NCBI GenBank assembly: GCA_900317025.1
Contig: ONFG01000009.1
Span: 1 to 42,617, forward strand
Source: an uncultured Eubacteriales bacterium
GTDB lineage: Bacteria; Bacillota; Clostridia; Oscillospirales; Acutalibacteraceae
Length of the DNA stretch: 42,617 nt
Direction: 5' to 3'
This document shows, in pieces, positions 1 through 27,800 of the stretch. A model generated the notes under the pieces. It was not told the DNA's origin. It did not search any database and was given only the letters and a program-made list of their open reading frames with translations. Made by a program: the position numbers and the translations under genes. Within the stretch, counting starts at the first letter, position 1; each line of letters opens with the position of its first letter.

Positions 1-390
1 GATATGCTTTTGCAGTTGAAAGACGAGCATACAAAACGCCGGTTCTGTCTTGGGACTGCGTGGCAAGGTGCGGATTGGGTTTTTATTCAGGATAACGGCG
101 ACATTATGTTCCCGACAAGCCCGACGCAGATGTTTGACAAGTTTTTGAAGCGAAACGGCTTGCCGCATCGCAAGTTTCACGCACTCAGACATACTTCTGC
201 AACGCTTTCTCTGATAAGTGGCGTGGATATAAAGACGGTCGCTGAACGACTCGGACATTCGCAGATGAAAACGACAAACCGCTATGTTCACGCTCTTGAA
301 GAAGCAGATGAGCGTGCGTCTGATGTACTTGGTGATCTTGTTCAGGAGCTTGAGAACAGATCGGCGAACGATAAAAGAAAAGACGTATAA
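1..390 (+). CDS. Tyrosine recombinase (phage/ICE-type integrase), C-terminal part
   Basis: The reading frame is open from the first base, so the N-terminal DNA-binding part lies outside the window. What remains is the catalytic C-terminus of a tyrosine recombinase: a HALRHTSAT box (the H-x-x-R of the active site), the LGHSQ box, and a Y in the following TNRYVHAL segment that fits the nucleophilic tyrosine. The family cuts and rejoins DNA at attachment sites to integrate or excise mobile elements. The gene ends in a charged tail followed at once by a hairpin terminator. The last ~20 codons and that hairpin recur in inverted orientation near 10.2 kb. It is probably the integrase of the element carrying the genes downstream, or a neighbour at the same hotspot. 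Confidence 0.88.
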   Translation, partial: DMLLQLKDEHTKRRFCLGTAWQGADWVFIQDNGDIMFPTSPTQMFDKFLKRNGLPHRKFHALRHTSATLSLISGVDIKTVAERLGHSQMKTTNRYVHALEEADERASDVLGDLVQELENRSANDKRKDV

Positions 391-442: not shown

Positions 443-1384
443 TCATCTCAACATACAATTCATAATTACGTTTATCATCATTTCCTTTTCGCTCGGCTGA
501 GATTCGGCTATCATGATCGTCAGCGCCGCAAGTGTCTGGTCGGCGATGGCTTTTTCCGTCTTTTTATCATCAAGAAACAGCGCTCCGTTTTTGTCGAGGA
601 AATACAGGAACATCGTCGCGGCAATGCGTTTGTTGCCGTCCGAGAACGAATGGTTCTTTGTAACGAAATAAAGCAGGTTTGCCGCCTTTTCTTCAAGCGT
701 CGGATATAGTTCCACGCCGTCGAATTCCTGATAAATGTTCGATATGCTGCCCTTGAAGGAATCGTCCTTCTCGTTGCCGAAAAGCGAGCTGCCCGAGGCA
801 AATTTCATCTCATCAATTACCCTGCGGCATTCGTCGTAATTTAAAACATAAACAGCCTTGCTGCCCGACGGCTTCCGCATAGTCTGATGATCGTATGCGT
901 CAAGCAGATCGAGCGCCGTGTTGAAGCGTTCGATGACCGACAGCACCTGCTTTGCGTCAAGCTGATTTTCCGCGCGTTTCATAATGCGTATGACCTCTCC
1001 GATCTGATCTATACGCTTATTATTCACGGCATAGCCCTTGATTATGTAATCTTTGAGAACGCTGTTCGCCCACCTGCGGAATTCCACGCCGCGCTTTGAT
1101 TTAACGCGATACCCGACCGAAATTATCACGTCGAGGTTATAGTACTCGACCTGATATGTTTTGCCGTCAGCGGCAGTTGTCGCAAAATTTGCGACAACTG
1201 AATTGTCATCGGAAAGCTCCTCTTTCAGTACATTGTTGACGTGCTTGCCAATGGTTTTGATATCGCGTCCGAAAAGCTCGGCAAGCTGCGCTCTGTTCAG
1301 CCATACAGTCTTGCCGTCTGTGCTGACGTTGAGCTTCACGGAGTGGTCGGAGGTCTCGTATAAAATGATCTCGTTTTTATTCAT
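443..1384 (-). CDS. RhuM-Fic/Doc fusion protein
   Basis: The 313-residue protein joins two modules. Residues ~1-125 look like the RhuM/virulence family: an N-terminal winged-helix-like segment (WLNRAQLAELFGRD) and the YYNLDVIISVGYRV block typical of the family. Residues ~185-300 form a Fic/Doc domain with the motif HSFSDGNKR at 245-253, in which the His and the DGNxR loop are intact. Fic/Doc domains transfer AMP or phosphate to target proteins and often act as toxins. The K in place of the second glycine of HxFx(D/E)GNGR resembles Doc kinases more than classic Fic enzymes (inference). No antitoxin ORF is apparent beside it. The gene is divergent from the PIWI operon with its own promoter and converges on the integrase. 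Confidence 0.85.
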   Translation of the reverse strand: MNKNEIILYETSDHSVKLNVSTDGKTVWLNRAQLAELFGRDIKTIGKHVNNVLKEELSDDNSVVANFATTAADGKTYQVEYYNLDVIISVGYRVKSKRGVEFRRWANSVLKDYIIKGYAVNNKRIDQIGEVIRIMKRAENQLDAKQVLSVIERFNTALDLLDAYDHQTMRKPSGSKAVYVLNYDECRRVIDEMKFASGSSLFGNEKDDSFKGSISNIYQEFDGVELYPTLEEKAANLLYFVTKNHSFSDGNKRIAATMFLYFLDKNGALFLDDKKTEKAIADQTLAALTIMIAESQPSEKEMMINVIMNCMLR

Positions 1385-1422
1385 TGCATTTACCTTTTTC
1401 GTCGAAAAATTAGTGTTGATTT

Positions 1423-1451
1423 ATGATACAACATATTGAGTAAAATGTCAA
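1423..1451 (-). promoter_or_regulatory. Sigma-A promoter of rhuM-fic
   Basis: On the minus strand, TTGACA (1446-1451) and TATCAT (1423-1428) are separated by 17 nt, about 40 nt upstream of the start codon. Confidence 0.65.
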
Positions 1452-1531
1452 TTGTATTCTGAGAACATATTCGATTTTTACGCGATCTATATGATGTGTT
1501 TTGTATTAAAATTAAATATGTAAAATTCTAC

Positions 1532-1560
1532 TTGACAGGAAGGAGAACGTGTGTTAGAAT
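1532..1560 (+). promoter_or_regulatory. Sigma-A promoter of the pPIWI-RE operon
   Basis: TTGACA (1532-1537), a 17-nt spacer and TAGAAT (1555-1560) form a near-consensus promoter about 160 nt upstream of the first gene. Transcription should begin near 1567. It is divergent from the rhuM-fic promoter, leaving ~80 nt between the two -35 boxes. Confidence 0.7.
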
Positions 1561-1566
1561 AAAGGC

Positions 1567-1702
1567 GTACACGAAAAATATCATAAAGTATGCAATGTAA
1601 AGCCAAGGAGAACTTGTATAGAAGTGACTGCGTTGACTTTGCATTTTATTCAGTTAAGAATGTATGCGCTTTCCGATATTTTTTCGGGAAGCGCTTTTTG
1701 TT
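1567..1702 (+). ncRNA. Leader RNA / attenuator ahead of the pPIWI-RE operon
   Basis: From the predicted start site to the end of a T run this would be a ~135-nt RNA. It ends in a strong hairpin (GCGCTTTCCGA at about 1667-1677, TCGGGAAGCGC at about 1684-1694) followed by TTTTTG, which looks like an intrinsic terminator placed before the AGGAGG site of the first gene. Farther 5', complementary segments around TATGCAA (~1590) and TTGCAT (~1639) could form a second stem. An imperfect repeat, AAGGAGAACGTGT in the promoter spacer and AAGGAGAACTTGT at ~1605, flanks the RNA 5' half. It could be an attenuator, a stable small RNA, or both. No matching RNA family is known to me. Confidence 0.45.
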
Positions 1703-1720
1703 TTACAGGAGGTATGAAAA

Positions 1721-2794
1721 TTGAAAGAATCAGAATTTGATAGTATGATCTATGCTATTGCCGCAGGATTGTACGAAAAATCACAAAGACCTGAAAAATA
1801 TTTTTATAGCGAGAAATTGATGTACGGTATAAACAAGCTGGCTGCTATGGCTGCACAAAACGGACGTGCTGATATCCTTTCCGAACTTCACGAGAACGCT
1901 TTTTTGAAGAGGTTTGCCGCACGTCCGGTCAGATCTTGGTTTGTCAGGTGGGATACGGCGTTTACTGCCGAATTGAAAAAATATCCGCTGTTTAATACGG
2001 GGGCGCTTGCGGAGATTTACGACGGAAATGTATTCGATATTACCGATGAGTGTGCCGTGCTTTGCGCGACTACGGAGAGCGATTTTTTCAACGCATTGAC
2101 TCAGGAGAATGCTTATCGTAAAATGCGCGAGCTGTCCGCCGAAGAGTATACGGCGGTGAGGGAATTTATTGTCCTGCACCCGCTGTGTTCGGGGCGCGAT
2201 ATACGCCGCTTCAAGATCGCACATAATTCTCCCGAAATACAAAGTGTGTTCAACGCTGCATACGAAGATATCCCGCAGGACAGCTATAAATGTCCCGAAT
2301 GCGGCTGGACTATGCGTTTTATCGGGAAAAGATCGGTATGCTGCAACAACTCATGCAGCCGTACTCACCGAACACGCGATCAGTTCGAAAGGATCGACAG
2401 CTCTTATGAGAAAAGGCTCGTCCACGGCGTGATGCGCTATATGTGTATACCAGGAAAAATAGAGATCAAAATACGCAATGAGGCGGAAAAGCTTGGGTGC
2501 GAGACCGAGCTTTGGCCGGAGCACGATAAATATGATATAAAGATAATACTGCCCGATGGGAGCGTCTGGGCGATAGATGCCAAGACACATCTAAATCCCT
2601 ATAACCTTGCGTCGCAGATAAAAAACGACGGGAGTTTTACTTCCGAACAGGCGGACGAGCATATTTATGTTGTTCCGCACGAACGCAAAGCAGAGAATCC
2701 TGCGTATTGTGATATCTGCAAAGACGCTTTACAGCCCGGCGTTTTATTTATGACTGACAAAGAGCTGTATCAAAAGATAAAGGAGGCGATATAA
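1721..2794 (+). CDS. pPIWI-RE island nuclease: zinc ribbon plus PD-(D/E)XK domain
   Basis: The 357-residue protein is the first gene of a three-gene operon. A helical N-terminal region (1-185) is followed by a zinc ribbon (C191, C194, C207/208, C212) and then a restriction-endonuclease-like fold. There D272 (strand YDIKIIL), D286 and K288 (AIDAK) fit the D...(D/E)xK active site. This architecture and gene order match the REase component of pPIWI-RE three-gene islands (domain Y plus REase). The predicted role is cleavage of invader DNA; that is inference from family literature. TTG at 1721 is chosen because AGGAGG sits 8 nt upstream; a nearer ATG (1713) opens only a short ORF in another frame. 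The stop overlaps the next start. Confidence 0.78.
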   Translation: MKESEFDSMIYAIAAGLYEKSQRPEKYFYSEKLMYGINKLAAMAAQNGRADILSELHENAFLKRFAARPVRSWFVRWDTAFTAELKKYPLFNTGALAEIYDGNVFDITDECAVLCATTESDFFNALTQENAYRKMRELSAEEYTAVREFIVLHPLCSGRDIRRFKIAHNSPEIQSVFNAAYEDIPQDSYKCPECGWTMRFIGKRSVCCNNSCSRTHRTRDQFERIDSSYEKRLVHGVMRYMCIPGKIEIKIRNEAEKLGCETELWPEHDKYDIKIILPDGSVWAIDAKTHLNPYNLASQIKNDGSFTSEQADEHIYVVPHERKAENPAYCDICKDALQPGVLFMTDKELYQKIKEAI

Positions 2795-5700
2795 TGAAGA
2801 CCGAGCTTGACAGAATAAAGGGCACATTGAAAGCGTATCCGAATGGCATTGATATCAATAAAATGGTTCAAACCGAGATGACGCTTGCCGTTATGGAGCT
2901 TTGCGCACCCGAGGGCGACCTTTCAAAAGCGTTTCTGCTGCTTCAAAATTATTCTCTGATCGGAAGAATAAACGACGCTCGGGAGACAGCATTCTTACAA
3001 AAAGCTCATATCTGTCTGAAGCAATGCAGTTCCAAGCAGAACTGGCTCCGCCTTTTGGAAAGCTATCGTGAAATCGACGAAGCATATCGTCTTTATAATA
3101 TCACAGAGGTGACGACCAATGATAAAACCGTTTTAAAGCTTAGCAGGAATAACGACACAGCGATCGAACCCAATCGTGCGGATACTTATATTTCATATAT
3201 CAAGGCTTATCACGAAGAGAGACAAGCGGCGAGAATTGCGTCTGACGGAACCTACAGCTACTATATCAAGGGCAGCGACACACCGCCGGTCGAGGTAACA
3301 ATACCGAAGATTGGAGAAATACCGGCTCGTTCGTACGAACCGAAGAGCAAAAGGAAACACATCTGTGTGACCATAGATGAATTGAAGAATTCTGCCTGTG
3401 AGATCAAGAGCTTGCTTCCCAAGGATCACAGCTATGATGTTTTGCAGTCAAATCTTATAAAAGAAGTCTGCGAAAATGAAGTAAGACCTGCACAGCAGTT
3501 CGACATCAGTGAAGCTGTTGATCTTGTCGGCATGGTCGGAGCGGGAAAATCTACGCTTATGAAGGTGCTGACTTACCGGCTTGCAAAGCAGCGAAAGAAA
3601 ATAGTGATCGTGCTCGATACCATATCGGAGGTGCTCAAAACAGTCGGATATTTTCGCAGGCTGAATATCAGCGCGTCTCCTCTCATTGGTCGAGGCAATC
3701 GGGAAAAATATATAGACCAGATGTCAATACCCGATGAGATGTACCTCGATCCGCTTTATTCGGAGTATCTGACAACTCCGTGCATAATTTCCGGTATGTC
3801 AAATTCAGACGGTGCCGTACCGAAATTCGGTGAGGAGCCGTGCCGAAGCCTAAAGAAAGGAAGATCGTATTACACTTGCCCGTATATTGACATTTGCCCG
3901 ACGACAAGAATGTACAGGGAGATATATACAAGCGATGTGATCGTGACTACAGTTCAGGGACTGACTGCTGTAAAGATCATAGGAAGCGGACAACTGTTTC
4001 TTGAATATGTGCTTGAACAGACCGACCTTGTTATCTTCGATGAATGCGATAAGGTCCAGAAAACGCTTGATGAGTTTTTTACGCCTTGTACCGATTTTTT
4101 GGAATTCATGAAAAGCAATGCGGACGCTTGCGCAAAAGACATGAAAAGGGACGCGGCTTCACAGGACGCGATGGACGAAAATGAACGCTGCTATTCAACT
4201 GCGCGCAATCAATCTTTTGAAGTTTCATTAAGAGTGCGTGAGGCGATACAGTCGATCGAGGATCCTTGGAAATATATGCTGAGAGAAACCTTCTCCGCTA
4301 TGACTCTTTATCACAGGCTTTGCGAAGAATCCGAAAACGGCAAAAACAAACTCACACCGAAAATACTGACGATGCTGGAAACGGCAATGGATACGCCGAA
4401 GGACGATGAACTTGATACGATCTTAGATATTGCGCTTCAGCTTGAGAATGACGAGAAGTTTACGCGCAAACTGAAAAAGTGGCTGTCAAAAAACGGATGT
4501 GAAGCCGACATTGTGCTTTTGAAGCATATCAAACTTTACCTTATCCTGACGGGATTTGACAACTACATCAAGTCGCTTGAAACAGCGTATTCATATCTTT
4601 CCGATGAGAATAAGGATAAAACGGAGCTTTTCGATTTTTTACAGGCTCGCTTTACCGCTCAGCAAAAGTTTCTGCCTTCATCGGTAATGGGCAATTTATT
4701 TGGTATGAGGAACGATCCTAAAAGGGGGCTGCAGCTTTATCGTCAGTATGCCTTCGGGCGTGCTCTTATGAACAGGATGCCGTATCTTAGACTCGAAAAC
4801 GACGGCTCTCCCGCGGGACCTCATGTTTTGCTGATGTCAGGCTCCAGTTGGGCGCCGGGCTGTTTGGAGTATCATGTTAATGTTCCTGTGAAGTATATAC
4901 TCGAAGCGGAGCCGTGGAAACGGGATAAGCTGTGCGAAACAGAAATGATCGACTTGTATACGGGCGTACGTGTGTCCGGAACCGGAGCAGATGAACGTAC
5001 AGGTAATCTACGGCTTGTTATACAAAAAATAATAGAAACGGTCAGAGCGGAGCTTAACAAAGGGCGAAAGCTCCTGATGATCGTTAACAGCTATAATGAA
5101 GCGATAACGGCAGAAAAAGCGCTTAACGAGCTTCTTGACGGAAAACCCGCCGCGTGTATGGTGCGCAGCAAGGGAACCGATGATATAGAACTTAACACAC
5201 AGGTACTCAGAGCCAATGTGCATGGCTTTGACAGCCACCGCGCCAAAATACTCGTCGCGCCGGCACAGGCGATAGAACGCGGCTACAATATCGTTGACAA
5301 GGACGGTCACTCGGTATTCGGGAGTATTTTCTTTTTGGTCAGACCTATGCCCGTGCCGAATGAAATATCCTCAAAATGCGCAAAGCTGAACGGACTCGCC
5401 GAGCAGAGAGCTATGAGCGACAGTATGTCGAACGGCTATAAGAAAGCAGATAATCTTCGCGGCTATGCCGCGCGTCAATGGCGGCAAATGGAGGTCGAGT
5501 CCCGAAAAACGCTGAGATATATCAGCAAAACTCTTCGCAGAGATGTAACGGCAGCTCTGTTTGTTCTCATCTTGCAGCTTTTCGGCAGACTTGCGCGTAT
5601 CACCGATCCGACTAAGGACGCACCCTGCGTTTATTTCGCAGACGGAGCATTCCACGCCGCAGAAAGCTCTCGCGGCGGTTACGACAGCCTTAACGAACTG

Positions 5701-5847
5701 AGATATTACCTCAATGAGATGATGGAAAGCGAGCAGTCGGCAGCGATAGCCGCCTCTCTTTACGAGCCGTTTTATACGGCTTTTATGAAAGGAGTAAATG
5801 AAAATGTCATGTATATACCCGATGGCAATGACGCCGAAGACGAATAA
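2794..5847 (+). CDS. pPIWI-RE island DinG-like superfamily 2 helicase
   Basis: The 1017-residue protein has an N-terminal region of ~230 residues (island domain Z), then a helicase core. Walker A is GMVGAGKS (246-253). Four cysteines at 330, 350, 362 and 368 lie between motif I and motif II as in the Fe-S cluster domain of XPD/DinG helicases. The motif II-like Walker B is VIFDECDK (D416-E417). A motif VI-like QLFGRLARI lies near residue 928. DinG helicases unwind DNA and DNA-RNA hybrids, which suits a partner for a guided PIWI protein (inference). The DECD variant replaces the usual DEAH. Translation is coupled: its start touches the nuclease stop, and its end overlaps the pPIWI start by ~50 nt. 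Confidence 0.85.
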   Translation: MKTELDRIKGTLKAYPNGIDINKMVQTEMTLAVMELCAPEGDLSKAFLLLQNYSLIGRINDARETAFLQKAHICLKQCSSKQNWLRLLESYREIDEAYRLYNITEVTTNDKTVLKLSRNNDTAIEPNRADTYISYIKAYHEERQAARIASDGTYSYYIKGSDTPPVEVTIPKIGEIPARSYEPKSKRKHICVTIDELKNSACEIKSLLPKDHSYDVLQSNLIKEVCENEVRPAQQFDISEAVDLVGMVGAGKSTLMKVLTYRLAKQRKKIVIVLDTISEVLKTVGYFRRLNISASPLIGRGNREKYIDQMSIPDEMYLDPLYSEYLTTPCIISGMSNSDGAVPKFGEEPCRSLKKGRSYYTCPYIDICPTTRMYREIYTSDVIVTTVQGLTAVKIIGSGQLFLEYVLEQTDLVIFDECDKVQKTLDEFFTPCTDFLEFMKSNADACAKDMKRDAASQDAMDENERCYSTARNQSFEVSLRVREAIQSIEDPWKYMLRETFSAMTLYHRLCEESENGKNKLTPKILTMLETAMDTPKDDELDTILDIALQLENDEKFTRKLKKWLSKNGCEADIVLLKHIKLYLILTGFDNYIKSLETAYSYLSDENKDKTELFDFLQARFTAQQKFLPSSVMGNLFGMRNDPKRGLQLYRQYAFGRALMNRMPYLRLENDGSPAGPHVLLMSGSSWAPGCLEYHVNVPVKYILEAEPWKRDKLCETEMIDLYTGVRVSGTGADERTGNLRLVIQKIIETVRAELNKGRKLLMIVNSYNEAITAEKALNELLDGKPAACMVRSKGTDDIELNTQVLRANVHGFDSHRAKILVAPAQAIERGYNIVDKDGHSVFGSIFFLVRPMPVPNEISSKCAKLNGLAEQRAMSDSMSNGYKKADNLRGYAARQWRQMEVESRKTLRYISKTLRRDVTAALFVLILQLFGRLARITDPTKDAPCVYFADGAFHAAESSRGGYDSLNELRYYLNEMMESEQSAAIAASLYEPFYTAFMKGVNENVMYIPDGNDAEDE

Positions 5848-8308
5848 GATCTTTAAGCTGTATTTTCTTGGTTTCCCCCCGCGTTGGAAGGAGCTGCTTC
5901 TTCGCCTTCAGTTATCTGTGAACCCAACGTTCAACACGGAGTACAATCTAAAAACCAATGTCCTTTACGGTTACCTGATGAGCTGGCTCGACGATGTCGT
6001 GAAGATCAATCCCATGAAAAAAACATCGGACGACAGCTGCTGGCTTGTCTCTCTGAAAGGACCCGATGCGGAAAGCATCTGCGAGATATTGCAGATCTGG
6101 TCGATGTCGGAATATGGAGAACACAAAAAAAGAACGCCCGAAACGGAGGCGCTTATAAAAGAGCTTTGTGAAGCGGCAGAACCTGATACGCTGCGAAGCT
6201 TTCTTCGCTGTGAGGAAGTGCGGCTGTTTGACGATAACGGACATGCGCTGACAGACTATGCGTTCGACGCTTTTGCCATTTACGCTGCCAATGCGCTTTT
6301 GGGAAAGACGATAACTATCTCCGGTCATGAATTGACTTTATGCAGCTGCGGCAGCAAAAAGCTCATGAGCCGCCCTGTTTCCGATGAAAAGAAAAACCCC
6401 TGTTATTTCTCTATCGCAGTCGAAATGTCCGTTCAGACAACGCCGCCCGAAAGGAAATGTATATTGCCCGTGGTTTGTTCTGTCAGACGTTTTATCTCGA
6501 ACGCAAACAGGGAGAATATTTATCTGGGTGAGAATATCCACGCATATGTTTCTGGAAATAAAAACAAATACCGCAGTATTACAATGCTTCAAAGTGCGAA
6601 CAAGGACGAAGAATCGGGCAAATATTTATACAAGCACTTTTGGAGCAAGCCCGAACAGCGGTGTTATGATCTTTATTATACCGACTCTCTGCCGACTGCC
6701 GAAGATGTGCTTTTCTCCCCGGAAACGTTTATAAAAGCGTCATCCGGAACTCAGATACTCCTGCCCTACAAAAACGGTATGTCTTTTACATATACGAACA
6801 TAGGAACGGGCGTTCCCATTGTGGATAAGGCGGAGATATTTCCTCAGATAGCGGAGTATATGAAGGATTTCGCCGCGCCCTTGGCAGAGGTTGAGTCTGT
6901 TGACAAAAGCCTCTCTGTTCGTTTGACGAAAGAGAAGGACAAGGCGATGAACAGGCAGCGTTTAAGAGACTGCGTCGATCTTTCGCAAATTACGATCGAG
7001 ATATACGGGCACAGAACCGACGGCGAATTGATCGGACTTATCAAAAACGAGATAGAAGAGTATTTCGGCGGCGAGGAGTACGGCTCCGTTATCCCTATCG
7101 AAATAAAGGAATGCGAATTGGGCGAGCTTGGCGGTCTGATGCGGTCCGATAAGTATGAGGAGAATCGCCGGCGCATCGAAAAGGTGCGTGGGATAATACC
7201 GGCTTCAAGTGATATCGTCGGTGCGCTTGTGATACTGCCGCCCGATCTGCGGGAAGAAGCAGGCGACCCTAAAGCGGCTCTGCGTGCGGGCTTCGCAGAT
7301 ACAAACAGACTGACGCAGTTTATATTTTCGCACAAAAAAGACGGCGAAAAAGATGACCCGAAAATGCGTGCTCGCGGCGCTGTGATGGATCTGTTCAGGC
7401 AGTTTGGATATACCTGCTTTAATGAAACAAGAAACACCGAAAAAAGCCCTGCTTTTGATGCAGATGTCATAGGCCTGGGAGTGTTGAGTCAGCTGCGCCC
7501 GCTGTGGGCAGGAGCGTCCAAAGAAGCGAAGTATACCGCAAAGCATCTTCCAATCTATATCACCTACAATGTAAGAAGCGGAAAAATGGCAGTCAATTGC
7601 GATATTCCCGGATTTTATCATCTTAGTTACCCGCAGGCGCTGCTGAAGCTTTCGGCGCTTTCTCGTCAGGAGGATTTTGTCCGCCTGTGCAATAGTGCGG
7701 CGCAGGGCGGATTTCGCAGCAAGCTGATCGGTATATCGCAGCTTTATCGAAATGCTTCCGCTATGATACTGACGGAGGCAAACGGAACGTCTCGCCAATT
7801 ATGGAAAGGACTGACAGATAAAACGATCGGGCAATACGAATATCTGGAGCAGTATATCCCATCAAAGATCGAAACGGGAACAAAAACTTACTCCGATATG
7901 CGCTCGTTCTGCGGTACAGGCGTGCGTATCATGAGAGTGCGCACGCAGGAAATCCCCGATTATTATACTCCGCAGAAGGACGAAGAAAATTACAGATCCG
8001 CAAGCGGAATGTTTGAATATGAAAAGGTGTTCTGGGGTATTGAGCCGCGTCCCAATAACAAAGACTACACTCTCAGCTTCAAAAACTCCCGATTTGATAA
8101 TCCTTCCAAAAGCTATGACGAATGCAGACCGGTCGAGTATTATCCGATACAGCTTCAGCCCGGCGACGACGCCCGGACGTGGGCTGCGTTTACAAATTAT
8201 CTCCGAATGGTGATGGTGCAGACAAGCAGAGATTCCGTAGTGCTTCCCGCACCGCTGCACCAGATCGGTCTGATGAAGGAATATCTGCTGCTTGCAAAGA
8301 AGAAGTGA
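5798..8308 (+). CDS. pPIWI-RE protein (PIWI/RNase H-fold)
   Basis: The 836-residue protein is recognised by its partners, its length and its layout as the PIWI component of a pPIWI-RE island. It has an N-terminal X-type region (~1-300), a middle MID-like region and a C-terminal RNase H-like domain (~550-836). Candidate core strands there are LPIYITYNVRSGKM (~585) and GVRIMRVRTQEIP (~705), followed by a closing helix with a conserved-looking E in GLMKEYLLL. pPIWI-RE proteins lack a PAZ domain and are predicted to bind a guide/target duplex. Whether the acidic triad is intact cannot be judged without an alignment. Starts at 5798 or 5804 are possible; AAGGAG at 5789-5794 is better spaced for 5804. 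It is the last gene of the operon. Confidence 0.72.
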   Translation: MKMSCIYPMAMTPKTNKIFKLYFLGFPPRWKELLLRLQLSVNPTFNTEYNLKTNVLYGYLMSWLDDVVKINPMKKTSDDSCWLVSLKGPDAESICEILQIWSMSEYGEHKKRTPETEALIKELCEAAEPDTLRSFLRCEEVRLFDDNGHALTDYAFDAFAIYAANALLGKTITISGHELTLCSCGSKKLMSRPVSDEKKNPCYFSIAVEMSVQTTPPERKCILPVVCSVRRFISNANRENIYLGENIHAYVSGNKNKYRSITMLQSANKDEESGKYLYKHFWSKPEQRCYDLYYTDSLPTAEDVLFSPETFIKASSGTQILLPYKNGMSFTYTNIGTGVPIVDKAEIFPQIAEYMKDFAAPLAEVESVDKSLSVRLTKEKDKAMNRQRLRDCVDLSQITIEIYGHRTDGELIGLIKNEIEEYFGGEEYGSVIPIEIKECELGELGGLMRSDKYEENRRRIEKVRGIIPASSDIVGALVILPPDLREEAGDPKAALRAGFADTNRLTQFIFSHKKDGEKDDPKMRARGAVMDLFRQFGYTCFNETRNTEKSPAFDADVIGLGVLSQLRPLWAGASKEAKYTAKHLPIYITYNVRSGKMAVNCDIPGFYHLSYPQALLKLSALSRQEDFVRLCNSAAQGGFRSKLIGISQLYRNASAMILTEANGTSRQLWKGLTDKTIGQYEYLEQYIPSKIETGTKTYSDMRSFCGTGVRIMRVRTQEIPDYYTPQKDEENYRSASGMFEYEKVFWGIEPRPNNKDYTLSFKNSRFDNPSKSYDECRPVEYYPIQLQPGDDARTWAAFTNYLRMVMVQTSRDSVVLPAPLHQIGLMKEYLLLAKKK

Positions 8309-8580
8309 CACTATAGGTTGTGTCATTTGCAACAGTAGAGTGTAAAAAGCTCTGTCATGAGTTAAACAGTTTAATAGTTTCGATAGTAGATGCGTATTTG
8401 AGCAGCCGCATAATTCTCTTTGTCGAAATAACAACAGCCTTGTCGAGCAGAAATTATTGGTGCACGTTTGGTGCACAACTTCAGCAAAAGTTATCGAAGA
8501 TAAGCAGAAGATACGCACCATGGAATGTGACGAAAACGGCTTGAAACAGCCATTTTTGGACGATGACGGATAGTAGTAAA
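8309..8580. other. Non-coding stretch after the pPIWI-RE operon
   Basis: I see no convincing gene. A tandem TTGGTGCAC-type repeat lies at ~8457-8477, and an AACGGCT/AGCCATT half-palindrome followed by T's lies near 8535-8557. The texture resembles integrase or attachment-site flanks, but no protein similarity can be claimed. Confidence 0.4.
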
Positions 8581-8581
8581 A

Positions 8582-8640
8582 AGTCGGTGGTCAGGTTGGT
8601 AAGGACGAGGTCGTCGGTTCAAGTCCGATTATCAGCTCTT
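8582..8640 (+). other. tRNA-like 3' fragment, possible attachment site
   Basis: A complete T arm is visible: GTCGG (8613-8617), loop TTCAAGT, CCGAT (8625-8629), followed by an acceptor-like TATCAGC. A D-loop-like GGTTGGTAAGG lies at ~8594. The distance between them is ~17 nt too short for a normal tRNA, about the length of an anticodon arm, and no matching 5' acceptor strand or CCA is present. This is not a functional tRNA; it resembles the tRNA 3' ends that tyrosine recombinases use as att sites (inference). Confidence 0.4.
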
Positions 8641-8652
8641 ATAAAACCGCAT

Positions 8653-8690
8653 AAGCAAGCCGTTTTTGATAAGCGGCTTGCTTTTCTTTT
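8653..8690 (+). terminator. Intrinsic terminator
   Basis: A perfect 10-bp stem (AAGCAAGCCG at 8653-8662, CGGCTTGCTT at 8674-8683) is followed by TTCTTTT, just downstream of the tRNA-like fragment. Confidence 0.75.
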
Positions 8691-8859
8691 GCTCGAAAAT
8701 AGGCTGTGGCGACTGTACCCCAAGGGCATTTCCTACGGCTTCGCCTTCGGGCACCCGGCGACTACTGACCGAAAAATTTTATCCAACATTTTTGATGGTG
8801 TATAATAAAACTTGACACAATCCAGACAACCGAAGTATAGTAAAAGAAAAAGGAAAGGG

Positions 8860-9110
8860 TCAAAAAAGGGAACAGGAGAACAGTATGATGAGGATTTAAG
8901 AAGCAGGCGATCAAGCTCGCAAGATAGGTCGGGAACACAGCCGCATCGGAGGAACTTGGAATTCCGAAAGGAACACCGGGAACATGGATGCATAAGGCAA
9001 GATTACGGTTAGGAATAGCTTATACTGTCGTGCTATGGAGGTAACCAGAACTGCATTCTACGACTATCTTGAGCGTAAAAACAAGCCATGGAAATATCAG
9101 ATTCTCACGT
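8860..9110 (+). pseudogene. IS3-family transposase remnant (OrfA and start of OrfB)
   Basis: Read across frames, 8880-9005 gives the HTH part of an IS3 OrfA: AIKLAR, then an ELGIPKGT...TWMHKARL segment, broken by at least one frameshift and a stop. From ~9035 a fragment TRTAFYDYLERKNKPWKYQ resembles the beginning of IS3 OrfB. The DDE catalytic core is missing, so the element is dead. It sits between the pPIWI-RE operon and a truncated jetA, evidence of past insertion and deletion here. Confidence 0.6.
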
Positions 9111-9320
9111 ACGAAATGGTGGAGGTGCTTCTTAATTTGCGGGTGTCCGGGACTCTCATAAACCTCTTGGTATCAATACAGCAAAAATCGATTCCACTTA
9201 AAACCTCCCCCCTTGCTTTATTATCTTTTGTATGATATTATGATGTTGTCAGAATTGCGGAATAATTAATCCAAAACCGTACAATGGGTCAAAAACTACT
9301 ATGTCAAAGGGATGGTTATC

Positions 9321-10130
9321 ATGAATGTTTTTAATATCATTCCCGCTAATTTCTTTTCTGTGCTTGTCTCTCAGAACCGCGAGATATATGTCGATGTATT
9401 GATGAATCTGTATGAGCTTTTTGAAGAGGAGATAAACATCAGGCTGAAAGCGTTTCTTGCTGAGATCGAACTGATCCTTGAAAACAGAGAATACGTTGTT
9501 GAAGACTCAGACGAAGCAGAGGAAACGGATAGCTCGTCAATTCGCGGGAAAGCCCGCATTATCGAACGCAGGCTCGAAAAAACGGGCTGGATAGACAGGG
9601 AATTTCTTGACGGCTCGTTTACGGAGATCATCACTCCGAAGCCCTACGCCATAAACGTTATGCGTATGCTGAAAGACCTGACGGCAGAGCGAACGGCAGA
9701 GTACAATTCTCTCGTCTTTTCCACATACTCCGCGCTGAATCAGGCATACATCGATAACCGCGACAGAATGTATGAGGCGCTGATAATTGCGCGCAATAAT
9801 ACCGAAAAGCGCGACTACGAGCTGAGATCCTTTTATCACAATATCAGAAGCTATCTGAATGTGATACGCGAAAACATGGATGTCGATCTGCTTTTGAAAA
9901 ATTATTTTGAAGAGTACAAAAAGCTTGCCGATCGCGTTTATCACCCTGTCAAAACAATGGATTCCGGCGAGCTTGAACGGTACCGCGGGCTTGCACAGCC
10001 ATTCGACAAGGAATACGGTGAAAAGCTGAAAAAGCTTTTACTCAGCGAGCTTCTTTCAGACTGCCGGGAATGCATTGAGTTTATGCTGAATGAAGAGATA
10101 AAGCTTGAGCAGGAAGCTATGCTTACTTAG
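9321..10130 (+). CDS. jetA: Truncated orphan Wadjet JetA
   Basis: The N-terminus (MNVFNIIPANFFSVLVSQNR) and the later blocks GWIDREFLDGSF, AINVMRMLKDLT, YSALNQAY and RVYHPVKTMDS follow the JetA family of the Wadjet defence system, an SMC-like MukF/kleisin-type subunit. Wadjet (JetABCD) is known to extrude and cleave closed circular plasmid DNA. Full JetA proteins are about 450-500 residues; this one has 269 and, after the YHPVKT block, ends in a short helical tail that may be the far C-terminus joined by deletion. No jetB, jetC or jetD is in the window, so it is probably a non-functional relic. ATG at 9321 fits the family N-terminus better than 9312. Confidence 0.68.
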   Translation: MNVFNIIPANFFSVLVSQNREIYVDVLMNLYELFEEEINIRLKAFLAEIELILENREYVVEDSDEAEETDSSSIRGKARIIERRLEKTGWIDREFLDGSFTEIITPKPYAINVMRMLKDLTAERTAEYNSLVFSTYSALNQAYIDNRDRMYEALIIARNNTEKRDYELRSFYHNIRSYLNVIRENMDVDLLLKNYFEEYKKLADRVYHPVKTMDSGELERYRGLAQPFDKEYGEKLKKLLLSELLSDCRECIEFMLNEEIKLEQEAMLT

Positions 10131-14293: not shown

Positions 14294-14493
14294 TATTCAC
14301 TTATCTATGCGGTTATGTATAATTGTAACCGCTCCGGATTTTTGCATACTTTTGAAGCTGAATGCAAATAACATATCTGATTTGTGTATGATAAAAGCAC
14401 AAGTTCCTTCAGATGTGTTTTTGCAATTTGGTTAGATAAGTGTTGCGAAAATTGCGTAATTGTTTGGCGACAATCGGAGCTTTGTGTTTTTTG

Positions 14494-14523
14494 GCGCATG
14501 ACTTCGGTTGTGCGCTTTTTTTA
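14494..14523 (+). terminator. UUCG-capped terminator/attenuator upstream of the LRR gene
   Basis: A 9-bp stem (GCGCATGAC / GTTGTGCGC) is closed by a TTCG loop and followed by seven or more T's, only ~25 nt before the start codon of the LRR gene. It either ends upstream transcription or attenuates the LRR gene. Confidence 0.65.
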
Positions 14524-14548
14524 TTACCATTTTTTAGGAGGAAATCTG

Positions 14549-16327
14549 ATGAAACGAAAAATTCTTGCGCTGCTGCTTGCCGCAACAATGGCAGTATCAA
14601 CAAGATCTGTGCTTTCGGCAGGCGCTGCGCAAACCTCATCCGAAGGCTCACAGGCGACGAGCACCGAAAAAAGCGGCGACAGGTTATCCCACGGGGATTA
14701 TGAGTATGAGGTGCTTGATGACGGTACGGTATCAATAGAGGAATACATAGGAAGCGAAACCGAGATAACGATACCGGACAAGATAGATGGAAAAACCGTA
14801 ACGAAGATAGGAGATCAGGCGTTTATATATCGACGTTCGATCACCGGCGTGATTATTCCCGATTCGGTCACAGAGATCGAGTGGCGGGCTTTTGAAGACT
14901 GCGATTCGCTTGCAAGCGTAAAGCTCGGCAAATCGCTGCAGGAAATTGGGTTCAGAGCTTTTAACGGCTGCGAAGCATTGACAAATATTGAGATTCCAAA
15001 ATCTTTATCAAAAATGTATTATAATTCCTTTAATGATTGCGTGTCGCTTGAAAGCTTTATTGTCGATAAGGACAATAATTATTTCTCTTCTGTTGACGGC
15101 GTGCTGTATAACAAGGATAAGACAACGCTTATCAGATGTCCGCAGACAAAGAAGAGTATCTCTGTGATTGATTCTGTAACGAAGATCGACGAAGGCGCTT
15201 GTTATGGGTGTGAATCTCTTGAAAATATTCTGCTCCCCGATAAATTAACAGAGATCGGCAAAGACGCCTTTAATAGTTGTCAGTCTCTTGAAGAAATTCA
15301 CATTCCCGAGTCGGTTGCGGAGGTCGGACACAGAGTTTTTTTCGGAACTGCGTGGCTGGATAACTATCCCGACGACCTTGTGATCGTAGGAGACGGTGTC
15401 CTCTATAAGTGCAGGGACGATGCAGAAGGCGAGATCACGATCCCGAAAACAGTTAAAAAGATCGTCGATGAAGCTTTTTACAGGTGTACTGCACTTGAAA
15501 GCATTACGATTCCCGATTCGGTAACGAAAATAGGCTTCGGTGCTTTTTCGGGCTGCTCGGCACTTAAAAGCCTCATTATTCCGGATTCCGTGACAACGCT
15601 TGACTATGAACTCACTGAAGATGGAATATTGACCGATTGTACATCGCTTGTAAGTGTGACCATAGGCAACTCGGTAACGACAATTCCGCCCTGCACCTTT
15701 GGTAACTGCACATCGCTCAAAAACGTTACGCTAGGAAATTCGGTCGGCGAGATAAAAGAAATAGCTTTTTACGACTGTACCTCGCTCGAAAGCATTACAC
15801 TCCCTAACTCGGTGACATCGATCGGTACCCGTGCGTTTGAAGATTGTACTTCACTTAAAAGCGTATACATTCCCGATTCGGTGACATTGATCGGGGAGGA
15901 GGCGTTTTTCGGCTGCACTTCGCTTGCAAACGTAATCGGCGGCGCAGGCGTAAGTACAATATACGACAACTCGTTTGCTGGTACACCCGTTTATGAGAAC
16001 CCAAGCGGCGATTTTATCATTGCAGGCGATATTCTCGTGGAGTATCGCGGAAGTGAGGAAAATGTAACGATACCTGAGGGTGTAAAAAGCATTCCTATGT
16101 ACTTCAAAAAAGATTCACCGAACAGCTACAGCGGAGGTGGAAGCGGTCTTACAGTGAATGATGATCTGAAGCTGAGAAGCGTTATACTGCCTGAATCCCT
16201 GAAAACGATAGGTAAATATGCCTTTGCGTACTGTTACTCTCTCGGAGATATAACGATCCCCGACTCCGTAACACTTATTGAAGAGGACGCATTTAGCGGT
16301 TTCCGAAGCAGGATATTCTGCACGTAA
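14549..16327 (+). CDS. BspA-like LRR surface protein, N-terminal part of a split gene
   Basis: This frame gives 592 residues starting at ATG 14549, which has TAGGAGG 7 nt upstream. A signal peptide (KILALLLAATMAVS) precedes tandem LRR_5 units of ~23 residues with the pattern A(F).(G/D)C(T/S)SL.(S/N)(I/V).(I/L)P(D/N)SVT.IG. These folds mediate adhesion or carbohydrate/protein binding in gut and oral bacteria. The stop at 16325-16327 interrupts the sequence just before a GSCAEEYAKNN segment that normally caps such repeats, and the same frame continues to 17497. If translated alone the product lacks the dockerin and would be secreted but unanchored. Confidence 0.82.
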   Translation: MKRKILALLLAATMAVSTRSVLSAGAAQTSSEGSQATSTEKSGDRLSHGDYEYEVLDDGTVSIEEYIGSETEITIPDKIDGKTVTKIGDQAFIYRRSITGVIIPDSVTEIEWRAFEDCDSLASVKLGKSLQEIGFRAFNGCEALTNIEIPKSLSKMYYNSFNDCVSLESFIVDKDNNYFSSVDGVLYNKDKTTLIRCPQTKKSISVIDSVTKIDEGACYGCESLENILLPDKLTEIGKDAFNSCQSLEEIHIPESVAEVGHRVFFGTAWLDNYPDDLVIVGDGVLYKCRDDAEGEITIPKTVKKIVDEAFYRCTALESITIPDSVTKIGFGAFSGCSALKSLIIPDSVTTLDYELTEDGILTDCTSLVSVTIGNSVTTIPPCTFGNCTSLKNVTLGNSVGEIKEIAFYDCTSLESITLPNSVTSIGTRAFEDCTSLKSVYIPDSVTLIGEEAFFGCTSLANVIGGAGVSTIYDNSFAGTPVYENPSGDFIIAGDILVEYRGSEENVTIPEGVKSIPMYFKKDSPNSYSGGGSGLTVNDDLKLRSVILPESLKTIGKYAFAYCYSLGDITIPDSVTLIEEDAFSGFRSRIFCT

Positions 16328-17497
16328 GGCTCATGCGCAGAAGAGTATGCAAAAAATAATTCTATTATGTATGAGCTTATAGCTGGCGAATTCCGTTATA
16401 ATATAAACGGCGAAGGCAGTGCTCGGATCGTTGCATACACGGGCGGTGAACAAAAGATTACGATACCCGACGTCATAAACGGAAGAACCGTTGCGGGTTT
16501 ATCTCTAGATTCGTTTGATGAAAACTGCCCCGAAAGGATCATCGTACCCGCATCGGTAACATCAATCACCGGTGGTTTTAATTGGACGGATATATGGGAA
16601 GAAAACAGAAGAGTATCGACCTTAGCAACACTTTCAGAAATCGTTGTAGACGAAAATAATGAAGCATATACAACAGTGGACGGTATTCTTTACGACAAAG
16701 CTGTTACAAAGCTCATCTATTGCCCTAGGGGAAAGAAAAGCGACAGCGTAGCTATTCCCGATACCGTTACAGAGATAGGCGATCAAGCGTTCTATTGCTG
16801 TTCAATGATCGGAAATGTGACTGTACCGGATTCTGTTACAAAACTGGGTTGGGCTGTTTTCAGCGGCTGCACCTCGTTGGAGACCGTCAGGCTTTCCGAA
16901 AAGCTGGAGGTGATACCGGACAACAGCTTTTCTCAATGCTCCTCGCTCGTTTCGGTGAATATTCCGGCATCCATAAAAACGATTGAAGCGTGGGCTTTTG
17001 ACGGGTGTTATTCCTTGAACAGAATAGATATTCCCAAGGAGGTCACCGATCTGCCCACTTATTCGTATGACGGTGGCGAAACGTGGGAGCAGATGGTTTT
17101 CCCTGTGGACGATGACTTTGTACTCGGTTGCTACTCAAATTCTCACGGCGAACAGTATGCAAAGGATCATAATATAAACTATGTCCTTCTGGACGACGGC
17201 AGCGATTCCGATACGGACAGCGACACAAGCGCCGACATAAAGACCGATACGCCGGATACTCCCGACGATAAGCCGAAAGCCGTATGCGGCGATCTCGACG
17301 ACGACGGGCTGATAACGGCAAACGATGCGCTTGCGATACTGCGCTCAAGCATCGGCATGGAAACGTTTTCACCCGAACAGGATAAGCTCGCCGATATAGA
17401 CGGCGACGGCAGCGTTACCGCAAACGATGCGCTTGCTGTTCTCAGATACAGCGTAGGTATCGACGACGGCATCGTCGGAAAAGAGATAATGATATAA
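16328..17497 (+). pseudogene. C-terminal part of the split LRR protein, with dockerin
   Basis: This is the in-frame continuation after the stop at 16325. The next internal ATG is at 16367 but has no ribosome site, and there is no signal peptide. The content is a GSCAEEYAKNNSI cap, more LRR_5 units, a linker rich in Asp, Ser and Thr, and a type I dockerin with loops GDLDDDGLITANDALAIL and ADIDGDGSVTANDALAVL. The comparable segment in the 11.5-kb dockerin protein (CKGSYAEEYAKAND) is uninterrupted. I interpret one ~980-residue gene broken by a nonsense mutation. Read-through or a sequencing error is the alternative. Confidence 0.75.
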
Positions 17498-27698: not shown

Positions 27699-27800
27699 AA
27701 ATTCCACTTCTTTTCTTAAAGTTTTTTATGTCAACACGCAAAGCCGCAAGCGCCGCCATGCGTGGAGTTTTAAACATATCAACAAACAGCGGTAAAGAAT

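What the first reader, a model, noticed from the sequence alone, without database searches (positions are those of the whole stretch)
1721..8308. Complete pPIWI-RE three-gene island
Directly visible are a tightly overlapping operon of a zinc-ribbon/PD-(D/E)XK nuclease, a DinG-like Fe-S helicase and an 836-residue protein with a PIWI-like C-terminus. From established knowledge, this is the composition described for pPIWI-RE islands, predicted to target invading DNA or DNA-RNA hybrids. I know of no established mechanism. Its own promoter, the intact reading frames and its place in a mobile island make this a good candidate for an active, poorly characterised immune system.
Basis: partly seen in the sequence, partly recalled or inferred. 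Interest (0 to 1): 0.85.

Follow-up and report, generated by a model that had tools for sequence, protein, structure and literature searches.

The report
Argonaute-like defence island with leader RNA
This bacterial DNA carries a known but little-studied Argonaute-like defence cassette of three genes, and in front of it sits a conserved, folded RNA that probably controls or serves the system.

Summary
Window 1721-8308 encodes an intact pPIWI-RE triad (REase, DinG helicase, pPIWI-RE protein). It lies beside an integrase fragment and ends 287 bp before a 46-bp copy of the tRNA-Thr 3' half, so it is probably in an integrative island. The triad family itself is known (PMC3702460).

First, the two PIWI positions that align with the catalytic aspartates of a characterised relative are Gly561 and Glu660, while REase and helicase motifs are intact. 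The PIWI protein is therefore more likely a guide-binding sensor than the nuclease.

Second, 1566-1700, between a near-consensus promoter and the REase gene, encodes a conserved structured leader RNA: fixed 5' end, central stem-loop, and a strongly covarying intrinsic terminator whose tip is complementary to the RNA's own 5' end. It is present in 14 of 14 distinct islands with upstream DNA, at 31% or more REase identity to the window's in those aligned, but was not found in six more distant triads. No Rfam match at gathering score was found, and no paper describing it.

Most likely it is a transcription attenuator; a trans-acting RNA partner of the PIWI protein is not excluded.

The parts
1532..1560 (+). 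sigma-70-type promoter TTGACA-17-TAGAAT
   Evidence: 11 of 12 consensus letters; 11-12 of 12 letters, spacer 17-18, in 14 of 14 distinct islands
1566..1700 (+). conserved structured leader RNA (predicted 5' end to end of terminator T-run)
   Evidence: fold z -3.68; covariation over 14 rows; best hit in the window of a model built without it
1566..1582 (+). conserved 5' box CGTACACGAAAAATATC at the predicted transcript start
   Evidence: box begins 5-6 nt after the -10 hexamer in 14 of 14; complementary to the terminator tip
1594..1645 (+). central stem-loop of the leader RNA (window's own minimum-energy fold)
   Evidence: A central helix at this place covaries in clade B; the window row forms only 4 of 7 of the A8 central pairs and uses other pairs in its own fold
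1666..1694 (+). intrinsic terminator hairpin followed by a T-run, 26 nt before the REase start codon
   Evidence: 11 pairs, 7 G-C; 1 found against 0.1 expected; 9 of 13 pairs with changes on both sides, 95.1% of cells paired, 0 of 500 shuffles as high
1675..1686 (+). terminator tip GATATTTTTTCG, complementary to CGAAAAATATC of the 5' box (one bulged U)
   Evidence: duplex -10.8 kcal/mol; 2 of 500 shuffles as good
1707..1712 (+). Shine-Dalgarno AGGAGG of the REase gene
   Evidence: sequence
1721..2794 (+). REase gene: Y-like helical region, zinc ribbon, PD-(D/E)XK nuclease
   Evidence: Pfam PF18154, PADLOC PprRE; conserved residues
2794..5847 (+). DinG-type Fe-S superfamily 2 helicase with Z domain
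   Evidence: Pfam PF18155, PADLOC PprDinG; motifs
5798..8308 (+). pPIWI-RE protein (X, MID, RNase H-like); R713/R715 and E780 kept; G561 and E660 at the expected catalytic Asp positions
   Evidence: Pfam PF13111, PF18157, PF13032; alignment
1..390 (+). tyrosine integrase C-terminus, cut by the contig edge
   Evidence: Pfam Phage_integrase 1.2e-14
443..1384 (-). RhuM-Fic protein (PADLOC candidate PDC-S23), beside the island; membership in the system not shown
8596..8641 (+). attachment-site core: 46 bp identical to the 3' half of tRNA-Thr(GGT)

Best explanation
This is a pPIWI-RE island that defends against invading DNA, carried on an integrative element at tRNA-Thr. Inferred working: the PIWI protein holds a short nucleic-acid guide but does not cut; pairing with target DNA or an R-loop recruits the DinG helicase, which opens the DNA, and the REase cuts it. 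Expression is set by a leader RNA: a strong promoter starts a transcript that normally ends at the terminator before the REase gene. Pairing of the RNA's 5' box with the terminator tip, or an event at the central stem-loop, lets RNA polymerase read into the operon when needed. Shown by sequence: the triad, its motifs, the altered PIWI residues, the promoter, the conserved terminator and leader layout, and the 5' box-terminator complementarity. Inferred: guide use, division of labour, attenuation, trigger.
For: Triad profiles. Nuclease and helicase residues invariant; PIWI catalytic positions replaced. Same gene order in every locus where all three genes are held; no flanking ORF of 100 aa or more shared by more than four of 14 loci. 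Leader RNA: promoter and box at fixed spacing in 14 of 14; both helices together 15 of 20 pairs with changes on both sides, 91.5% of cells paired, 0 of 500 shuffles as high, slid controls at most 57.6%; terminator alone 9 of 13 and 95.1%; held-out test; strong matches in genome samples only at pPIWI-RE islands; start codon with a Shine-Dalgarno-like motif in only 2 of 14 leaders. Plasmid-eliminating analogues with an Argonaute-like protein plus helicase/PD-(D/E)XK nuclease exist (PMC11096173, passages).
Against: No transcript, interference or binding data. PsPIWI-RE, also from a DinG/REase cluster, is catalytic, and its deletion raised ciprofloxacin sensitivity, which its authors link to DNA replication (PMC10991935). 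The catalytic positions rest on sequence alignment; Glu at the second position is still acidic, and clade-B proteins have Arg there with an Asp two residues later. A profile comparison with one classical pAgo was not significant (probability 0.41%, E 0.15). In 13 of 14 distinct leaders the minimum-energy fold has the terminator, not the alternative pairing, and no trigger is known. The central helix is supported by covariation in clade B only; a version slid by +2 reaches 71.0% paired against 88.5%. The RNA was not found in six more distant triads (L016, L054-L056, L058, L059).
Confidence: 0.5

Rival explanations
1. The leader RNA is a trans-acting fourth component. It is made in large amounts by partial termination and is bound by the PIWI-DinG-REase complex, either as a resident guide or licensing RNA through its conserved 5' tail, or as an inhibitor in the manner of type III toxin-antitoxin RNAs (architecture recalled, no call).
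For: Near-consensus promoter and strong terminator would yield an abundant RNA of ~100-135 nt. The 5' end is conserved almost to the base; in 6 of 9 minimum-energy folds its first 9 or more nt are unpaired over a folded body (in the window, L029 and L031 it is partly paired). The MID domain is predicted to anchor guide 5' ends (PMC3702460). One strong match per genome that has it.
Against: The terminator lies just before the REase ribosome-binding site, as attenuators do. The complementarity of 5' box and terminator tip is simpler as a cis switch. No binding data.
Confidence: 0.25
2. The 5' box is a DNA operator at the transcription start for a repressor (TGTACA is a palindrome), and the hairpin is an ordinary terminator.
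For: TGTACA in most clade-B boxes and again in most clade-B terminator tips.
Against: In the window's clade the terminator tip has no TGTACA, but in the window and L021 it is complementary to that clade's own 5' box (-10.8 and -15.7 kcal/mol, against means of -7.0 and -7.3 with the other clade's tips; the decayed L022 does not show this: -6.1 against -5.9). An insulating terminator would not normally sit between promoter and gene.
Confidence: 0.12
3. The triad is mainly a replication, repair or stress system rather than defence, as proposed for PsPIWI-RE.
For: The P. stutzeri deletion mutant is more sensitive to ciprofloxacin, and the authors speculate on a role in DNA replication (PMC10991935); DinG helicases act on R-loops (PMC3702460).
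Against: Patchy distribution: 7 of 394 genomes in the order, one of them below cut-off, and 2 of 22 in the genus; location beside integrase and att site; related triads on plasmids.
Confidence: 0.15
4. The island is a decaying remnant with no present function.
For: A sister copy (L022) has lost large parts of all three genes by internal deletions, and a Wadjet remnant lies next door.
Against: All three frames, the REase and DinG motifs, promoter, ribosome-binding site and leader pairing are intact here. A near-identical stretch occurs in a second genome, intact as far as its contig reaches (L020, 99.94% over 6,550 bp).
Confidence: 0.05

Closest known systems
pPIWI-RE three-gene islands (Burroughs, Iyer and Aravind 2013, PMC3702460; abstract, section 6 with its sub-sections, and search passages read)
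   Same: Gene order REase, DinG, pPIWI-RE; domain make-up; overlapping genes; patchy distribution; conserved R and E.
   Different: Here a conserved structured leader RNA precedes the operon. That paper's text has no occurrence of 'terminator', 'leader', 'untranslated' or 'attenuat'; 'promoter' occurs 22 times and 'non-coding' twice, and the 12 of 24 places shown concern Mediator or eukaryotic RNAs.
PsPIWI-RE of Pseudomonas stutzeri (PMC10991935; abstract, part 1 of the results section and passages read)
   Same: pPIWI-RE protein encoded next to DinG and a restriction-type nuclease gene.
   Different: PsPIWI-RE has catalytic D525 and D610 and cuts RNA-guided ssDNA; the aligned positions here are G561 and E660.
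ApsAB and DdmDE plasmid-elimination systems (PMC11096173, 12 of 29 passages shown)
   Same: Argonaute-like protein (ApsB without a typical PIWI domain) plus helicase and PD-(D/E)XK nuclease; works-like comparison.
   Different: Two proteins, helicase and nuclease fused, different Argonaute-like protein; no leader RNA mentioned in the passages seen.
Long-B and short pAgo systems with effectors (PMC10620215, PMC10810196; start of abstracts in search listing only)
   Same: Guide-binding Argonaute with a separate effector; long-B pAgos are catalytically inactive.
   Different: Classical pAgos and other effectors; no DinG-REase triad mentioned in the abstract starts seen.
Type III toxin-antitoxin loci such as ToxIN (recalled, no call)
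   Same: Promoter, structured RNA, terminator, then protein gene.
   Different: RNA made of tandem repeats; toxin is a single RNase; no PIWI protein.

Membership tests
pPIWI-RE three-gene island | pPIWI-RE protein with X, MID and RNase H-like domains | tested here: met
   PF13111, PF18157, PF13032 above cut-off
pPIWI-RE three-gene island | conserved Arg and Glu of the PIWI domain | tested here: met
   R713 or R715 and E780 conserved in the 13 proteins aligned, positions assigned by alignment
pPIWI-RE three-gene island | REase with zinc ribbon, first gene | tested here: met
   PF18154; Cys and Asp/Lys residues invariant in 12 of 12
pPIWI-RE three-gene island | Y helical domain of the REase protein | tested here: inconclusive
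   14.6 bits against cut-off 26.7 in Pfam; E 0.0034 in PADLOC
pPIWI-RE three-gene island | DinG-type Fe-S helicase with Z domain, second gene | tested here: met
   PF18155 and PprDinG; motifs
pPIWI-RE three-gene island | fixed gene order, overlapping or closely spaced | tested here: met
pPIWI-RE three-gene island | defence activity | not testable with these tools
   needs interference assays
catalytically active PIWI-RE nuclease (PsPIWI-RE type) | two catalytic aspartates (PsPIWI-RE D525, D610) | tested here: not met
   aligned positions G561 and E660; assigned by alignment and spacing, PsPIWI-RE itself was not in the alignment, no structure
catalytically active PIWI-RE nuclease (PsPIWI-RE type) | RNA-guided ssDNA cleavage | not testable with these tools
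   needs a purified protein
Rfam RNA families | match at gathering score over the leader | tested here: not met
   window 1380-1800: only match up to E 1 is VrrA, 23.3 bits, gathering 50; loci L021, L023, L026, L028, L029, L031, L032: only a tRNA
transcription attenuator | intrinsic terminator between promoter and first gene | tested here: met
transcription attenuator | mutually exclusive antiterminator pairing | tested here: inconclusive
   5' box pairs with the terminator better than the mean of its shuffles in 14 of 14, at most 10 of 500 shuffles as good in 9 of 14; terminator preferred in 13 of 14 distinct leaders
transcription attenuator | regulated read-through | not testable with these tools
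   needs RNA measurements

The most novel reading that the evidence does not exclude
The pPIWI-RE islands of this group are ribonucleoprotein systems of four parts. The leader RNA is a dedicated small RNA with a fixed 5' tail, made by partial termination, that loads into or restrains the PIWI-DinG-REase complex. The pairing of its own tail with its own terminator tip would be the self-recognition switch that couples the state of the complex to expression of the operon.
Probability: 0.22. Interest if true: 0.92.

Novelty: new variant of a known kind. Interest (0 to 1): 0.64.

Why it matters
pPIWI-RE triads were predicted in 2013 to be RNA-dependent restriction systems, but where their guides come from and how they are controlled is open as far as I found. 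A conserved RNA fixed directly in front of the operon across several genera gives a concrete handle: it can be mapped, deleted, swapped and pulled down. If it is bound by the PIWI protein, it would be an Argonaute-family defence system with its own dedicated RNA. If it is only an attenuator, it shows how such a potentially self-damaging nuclease system is kept off.

Tried and rejected
Plasmid and phage collections with the window's PIWI protein: no match. Viral contigs with the protein, with alignment A3 and with two 5'-box patterns: no relative and no match. A more distant member (L016) found relatives on 7 plasmid records, none in phages; 6 of the 7 were opened.

A fourth conserved protein gene: comparison of flanking ORFs of 100 aa or more of 14 loci (window not included; some flanks cut short by contig ends) found none shared by more than four. 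Leader peptide: a start codon with a Shine-Dalgarno-like motif occurs in 2 of 14 leaders (window and L022), so peptide-based attenuation was judged unlikely. Known RNA family: nothing at gathering score.

Profile comparison with a classical pAgo from the same order (L060): not significant (probability 0.41%, E 0.15), so the PIWI fold rests on the Pfam models. PDB search with the PIWI profile: 0 hits up to E 10. A second genomic match to the 5' box: one other on the forward strand with 2 mismatches, none on the reverse strand; the backward control also gave one, so no target was inferred.

Weak RNA-model hits in G292, G022, G386, G752 and G795, E 3.5e-4 to 0.008: in the four alignments printed (G752 twice, G386, G292) mainly the terminator helix matches, though G292 also has a loosely similar start (UGUAUACACAAAA). 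Those for G022 and G795 were not viewed. I treat all as chance terminators; this is a judgement.

Caveats on counts. Several loci are the same contig fetched twice (L010 = L027, L012 = L024, L014 = L025, L013 = L030, by equal contig lengths). L020 is nearly identical to the window and not counted apart. The 14 rows of A8 are window, L011, L021-L029, L031-L033; L022 is a decayed island and L031 has a split PIWI gene. R1 was trained on these rows, so its hits on them are by construction; only absence elsewhere and the R2 held-out hits are independent. In the order and phylum samples only 8 candidates per genome were scored, with stricter filters, and in the genus 150, so absence is not exhaustive. 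R2 did not recover L022 at E up to 10. The central helix of A8 fits clade B; the clade-A rows form 4, 3 and 5 of its 7 pairs and L025 and L033 form 3. Alignment A9 contains 3 minus-strand chance rows among 19, so I rely on A7 and A8 instead.
Full report
Observation. Three ORFs at 1721-2794, 2794-5847 and 5798-8308 overlap by 1 and 50 bp and are intact. Pfam identifies pPIWI_RE_REase, pPIWI_RE_Z, and pPIWI_RE_X + MID_pPIWI_RE + RNaseH_pPIWI_RE above their cut-offs; the Y domain is below. PADLOC gives PprRE, PprDinG and PprPIWI. This is the published pPIWI-RE three-gene island (PMC3702460, section 6 read). A nearly identical record is L020, 'uncultured Clostridiales bacterium isolate RUG322' (99.94% over 6,550 bp). 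L022, 'uncultured Ruminococcus sp. RUG13733', has the same island coordinates as contig C47 of G799, a genome of the window's genus. So the window comes from an uncultured Ruminococcus-type bacterium, probably of the rumen (meaning of 'RUG' recalled).

Mobile setting. The contig starts inside a tyrosine integrase gene (C-terminus 1-390), followed by a RhuM-Fic gene on the other strand. At 8596-8641, 287 bp behind the PIWI gene, lie 46 bp identical to the anticodon-to-3' half of tRNA-Thr(GGT) on contig C4 of the same genome. There the intact tRNA is followed, up to the contig edge, by a second integrase gene (374 aa, Phage_integrase 1.7e-28) that is 71% identical to the window's fragment over 119 aa. 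This fits one element, or a tandem pair, inserted at tRNA-Thr with C4 and C16 as flanks. The contigs are not joined, so it is an inference; some similarity also continues beyond the core. The sister copy L022 lies next to such a core too (7001-7043), but on its other side. In the order, 7 of 394 genomes have a pPIWI_RE_X match, 6 above the cut-off; in the phylum sample 2 of 398; in the genus 2 of 22.

Enzymes. In 12 of 12 aligned REases the cysteines C191, C194, C207, C212 and D269, D272, D286, K288 are invariant. In 13 of 13 DinG proteins G251-K252-S253, the cysteines C330, C350, C362, C368, D416-E417 and Q928, G931, R932, R935 are invariant. In the PIWI protein the conserved R (713/715) and E (780) are kept. 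The two positions expected to carry the catalytic aspartates are G561 (in VIGLGVL) and E660 (in ILTEANG). They were judged by alignment and by the spacing of D525, D610, R639 and E718 reported for PsPIWI-RE (PMC10991935); that protein was not in my alignment. None of the other 12 triad proteins in that alignment has Asp at the first position. At the second, two Nostoc proteins have Asp, and clade-B proteins have other residues with an Asp two places later. PMC3702460 already states that only a subset of the family keeps the catalytic residues. I could not check this on a structure.

The leader RNA. The stretch between promoter and REase gene is conserved in layout in 14 of 14 distinct islands of this group whose upstream DNA is held: window, L011, L021-L029, L031-L033. 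REase identity to the window is 31-53% where aligned. (1) A near-consensus promoter, 11-12 of 12 letters, spacer 17-18. (2) A box, TGTACACGAGAAAAGT in clade B with few exceptions and C/TGTAC/TACGAAAAA in the window's clade A (window, L021, L022). It begins 5 or 6 nt after the -10 hexamer in all 14, that is at the expected start of the transcript. (3) A central stem-loop of variable sequence. (4) An intrinsic terminator before the REase gene.

Covariation. Over the 14 rows the terminator has 9 of 13 pairs with changes on both sides and 95.1% of cells paired; 0 of 500 shuffles are as high, and slid versions reach at most 54.9%. The central helix is tested in the 11 clade-B rows: 4 of 8 pairs with changes on both sides, 88.5% of cells paired, shuffles 78.2% (0 of 500). 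The +2 slide reaches 71.0%, probably because these arms are AU repeats. Both together on A8: 15 of 20 pairs, 91.5% against 75.7% in shuffles. An unguided scan of column pairs in A8 put these two helices first and second by number of pair types. But the clade-A rows form only 4, 3 and 5 of the 7 central pairs of A8; each folds a central stem of its own. So the central stem is supported by covariation in clade B and only by folding in the window's clade. Fold z-scores of nine leaders run from -3.3 to -5.4 (9 of 14 folded in that call). The central segments taken alone fold less strikingly (z -0.2 to -3.2).

5' box and terminator tip. In clade B, 9 of 9 tested pairs between box and terminator form in 11 of 11 sequences, one with a compensatory change (L026). 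Most positions do not vary, so shuffles often equal it (83 of 500). The stronger argument is between clades. The window's and L021's boxes pair with their own terminators at -10.8 and -15.7 kcal/mol but at mean -7.0 and -7.3 with the other clade's, because box and tip differ together (CGAAAAATATC with GATATTTTTTCG). Own pairing is equalled by at most 10 of 500 shuffles in 9 of 14 and by at most 50 of 500 in all 14. The decayed copy L022 is the exception: -6.1 against -5.9 with the other clade, 32 of 500.

Specificity. A model from clade B alone (R2, 11 rows) scored against the whole window with filters off finds 1566-1700 first, 29.5 bits against 13.7 for the next, E 0.0021. It also finds L021 at 37.3 bits, but not L022. 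Since bare terminators can reach 34-42 bits with R1, the exact place and the aligned 5' box matter more than the score. R1 gives strong matches (E below 1e-11) in 5 of 394 genomes of the order, exactly those with a triad whose upstream DNA is held, and three weak ones. In the phylum sample it gives the window's genome plus two weak overlapping hits in one other. In the genus 3 of 22 are strong (the window's, G788 with an island cut by its contig edge, and G799, the decayed L022) and one is weak. Only 8 candidates per genome were scored in the two large samples. R1 found nothing up to E 1 in six distant triads (L016, L054-L056, L058, L059); in L057 the region upstream of the REase gene is not in the locus. 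Rfam 15 has no match at gathering score in the parts searched. Eight paper searches listed no paper describing such an RNA; the library holds open-licence PMC papers only.

Mechanism. Most likely the triad acts like other Argonaute-plus-effector systems: a non-cutting PIWI protein recognises invading DNA through a guide, DinG opens it, and the REase cuts. ApsAB, an Argonaute-like protein with a helicase/PD-(D/E)XK nuclease partner, eliminates plasmids and showed no activity against the eight phages tested (PMC11096173, passages), so plasmids are the first target to test. The leader most likely limits transcription of the operon by termination, with the 5' box as the switch strand. The same facts allow a bolder reading: that the short RNA with its fixed 5' tail is itself bound by the PIWI complex. 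The tools here cannot separate these.

Noticed in passing
window 9312-10130: 272-aa ORF that matches the N-terminal part of Wadjet JetA (aa 4-225) and, in the same frame, the C-terminal end of JetD (aa 215-271): apparently a Wadjet operon reduced by internal deletion.
   Followed up: partly
L022 7385-9744: Sister pPIWI-RE island that lacks three internal stretches of the window's (1846/2895, 3411/5606, 5961/7135), with promoter and leader still present but the box-terminator pairing weak.
   Followed up: partly
window 443-1384: RhuM-Fic protein strongly matching PADLOC candidate defence family PDC-S23, between integrase and pPIWI-RE operon; also present in L020.
   Followed up: no
window 25953-27707: Ammonium transporter and P-II regulatory domain in one ORF.
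   Followed up: no
window 14384-17497: Two proteins with BspA-type leucine-rich repeats, the second with a dockerin domain.
   Followed up: no
L057 (Streptomyces plasmid) 7127-8880: A hypothetical protein and a restriction endonuclease directly follow the pPIWI-RE gene in the same direction, a possible five-gene version.
   Followed up: no
L011 upstream of 5810: Where relatives have an ATG for the REase start, this locus reads ACG, so start use may differ.
   Followed up: no
L031 9935-12466: pPIWI-RE gene split into two ORFs while REase and DinG ORFs are full length.
   Followed up: no
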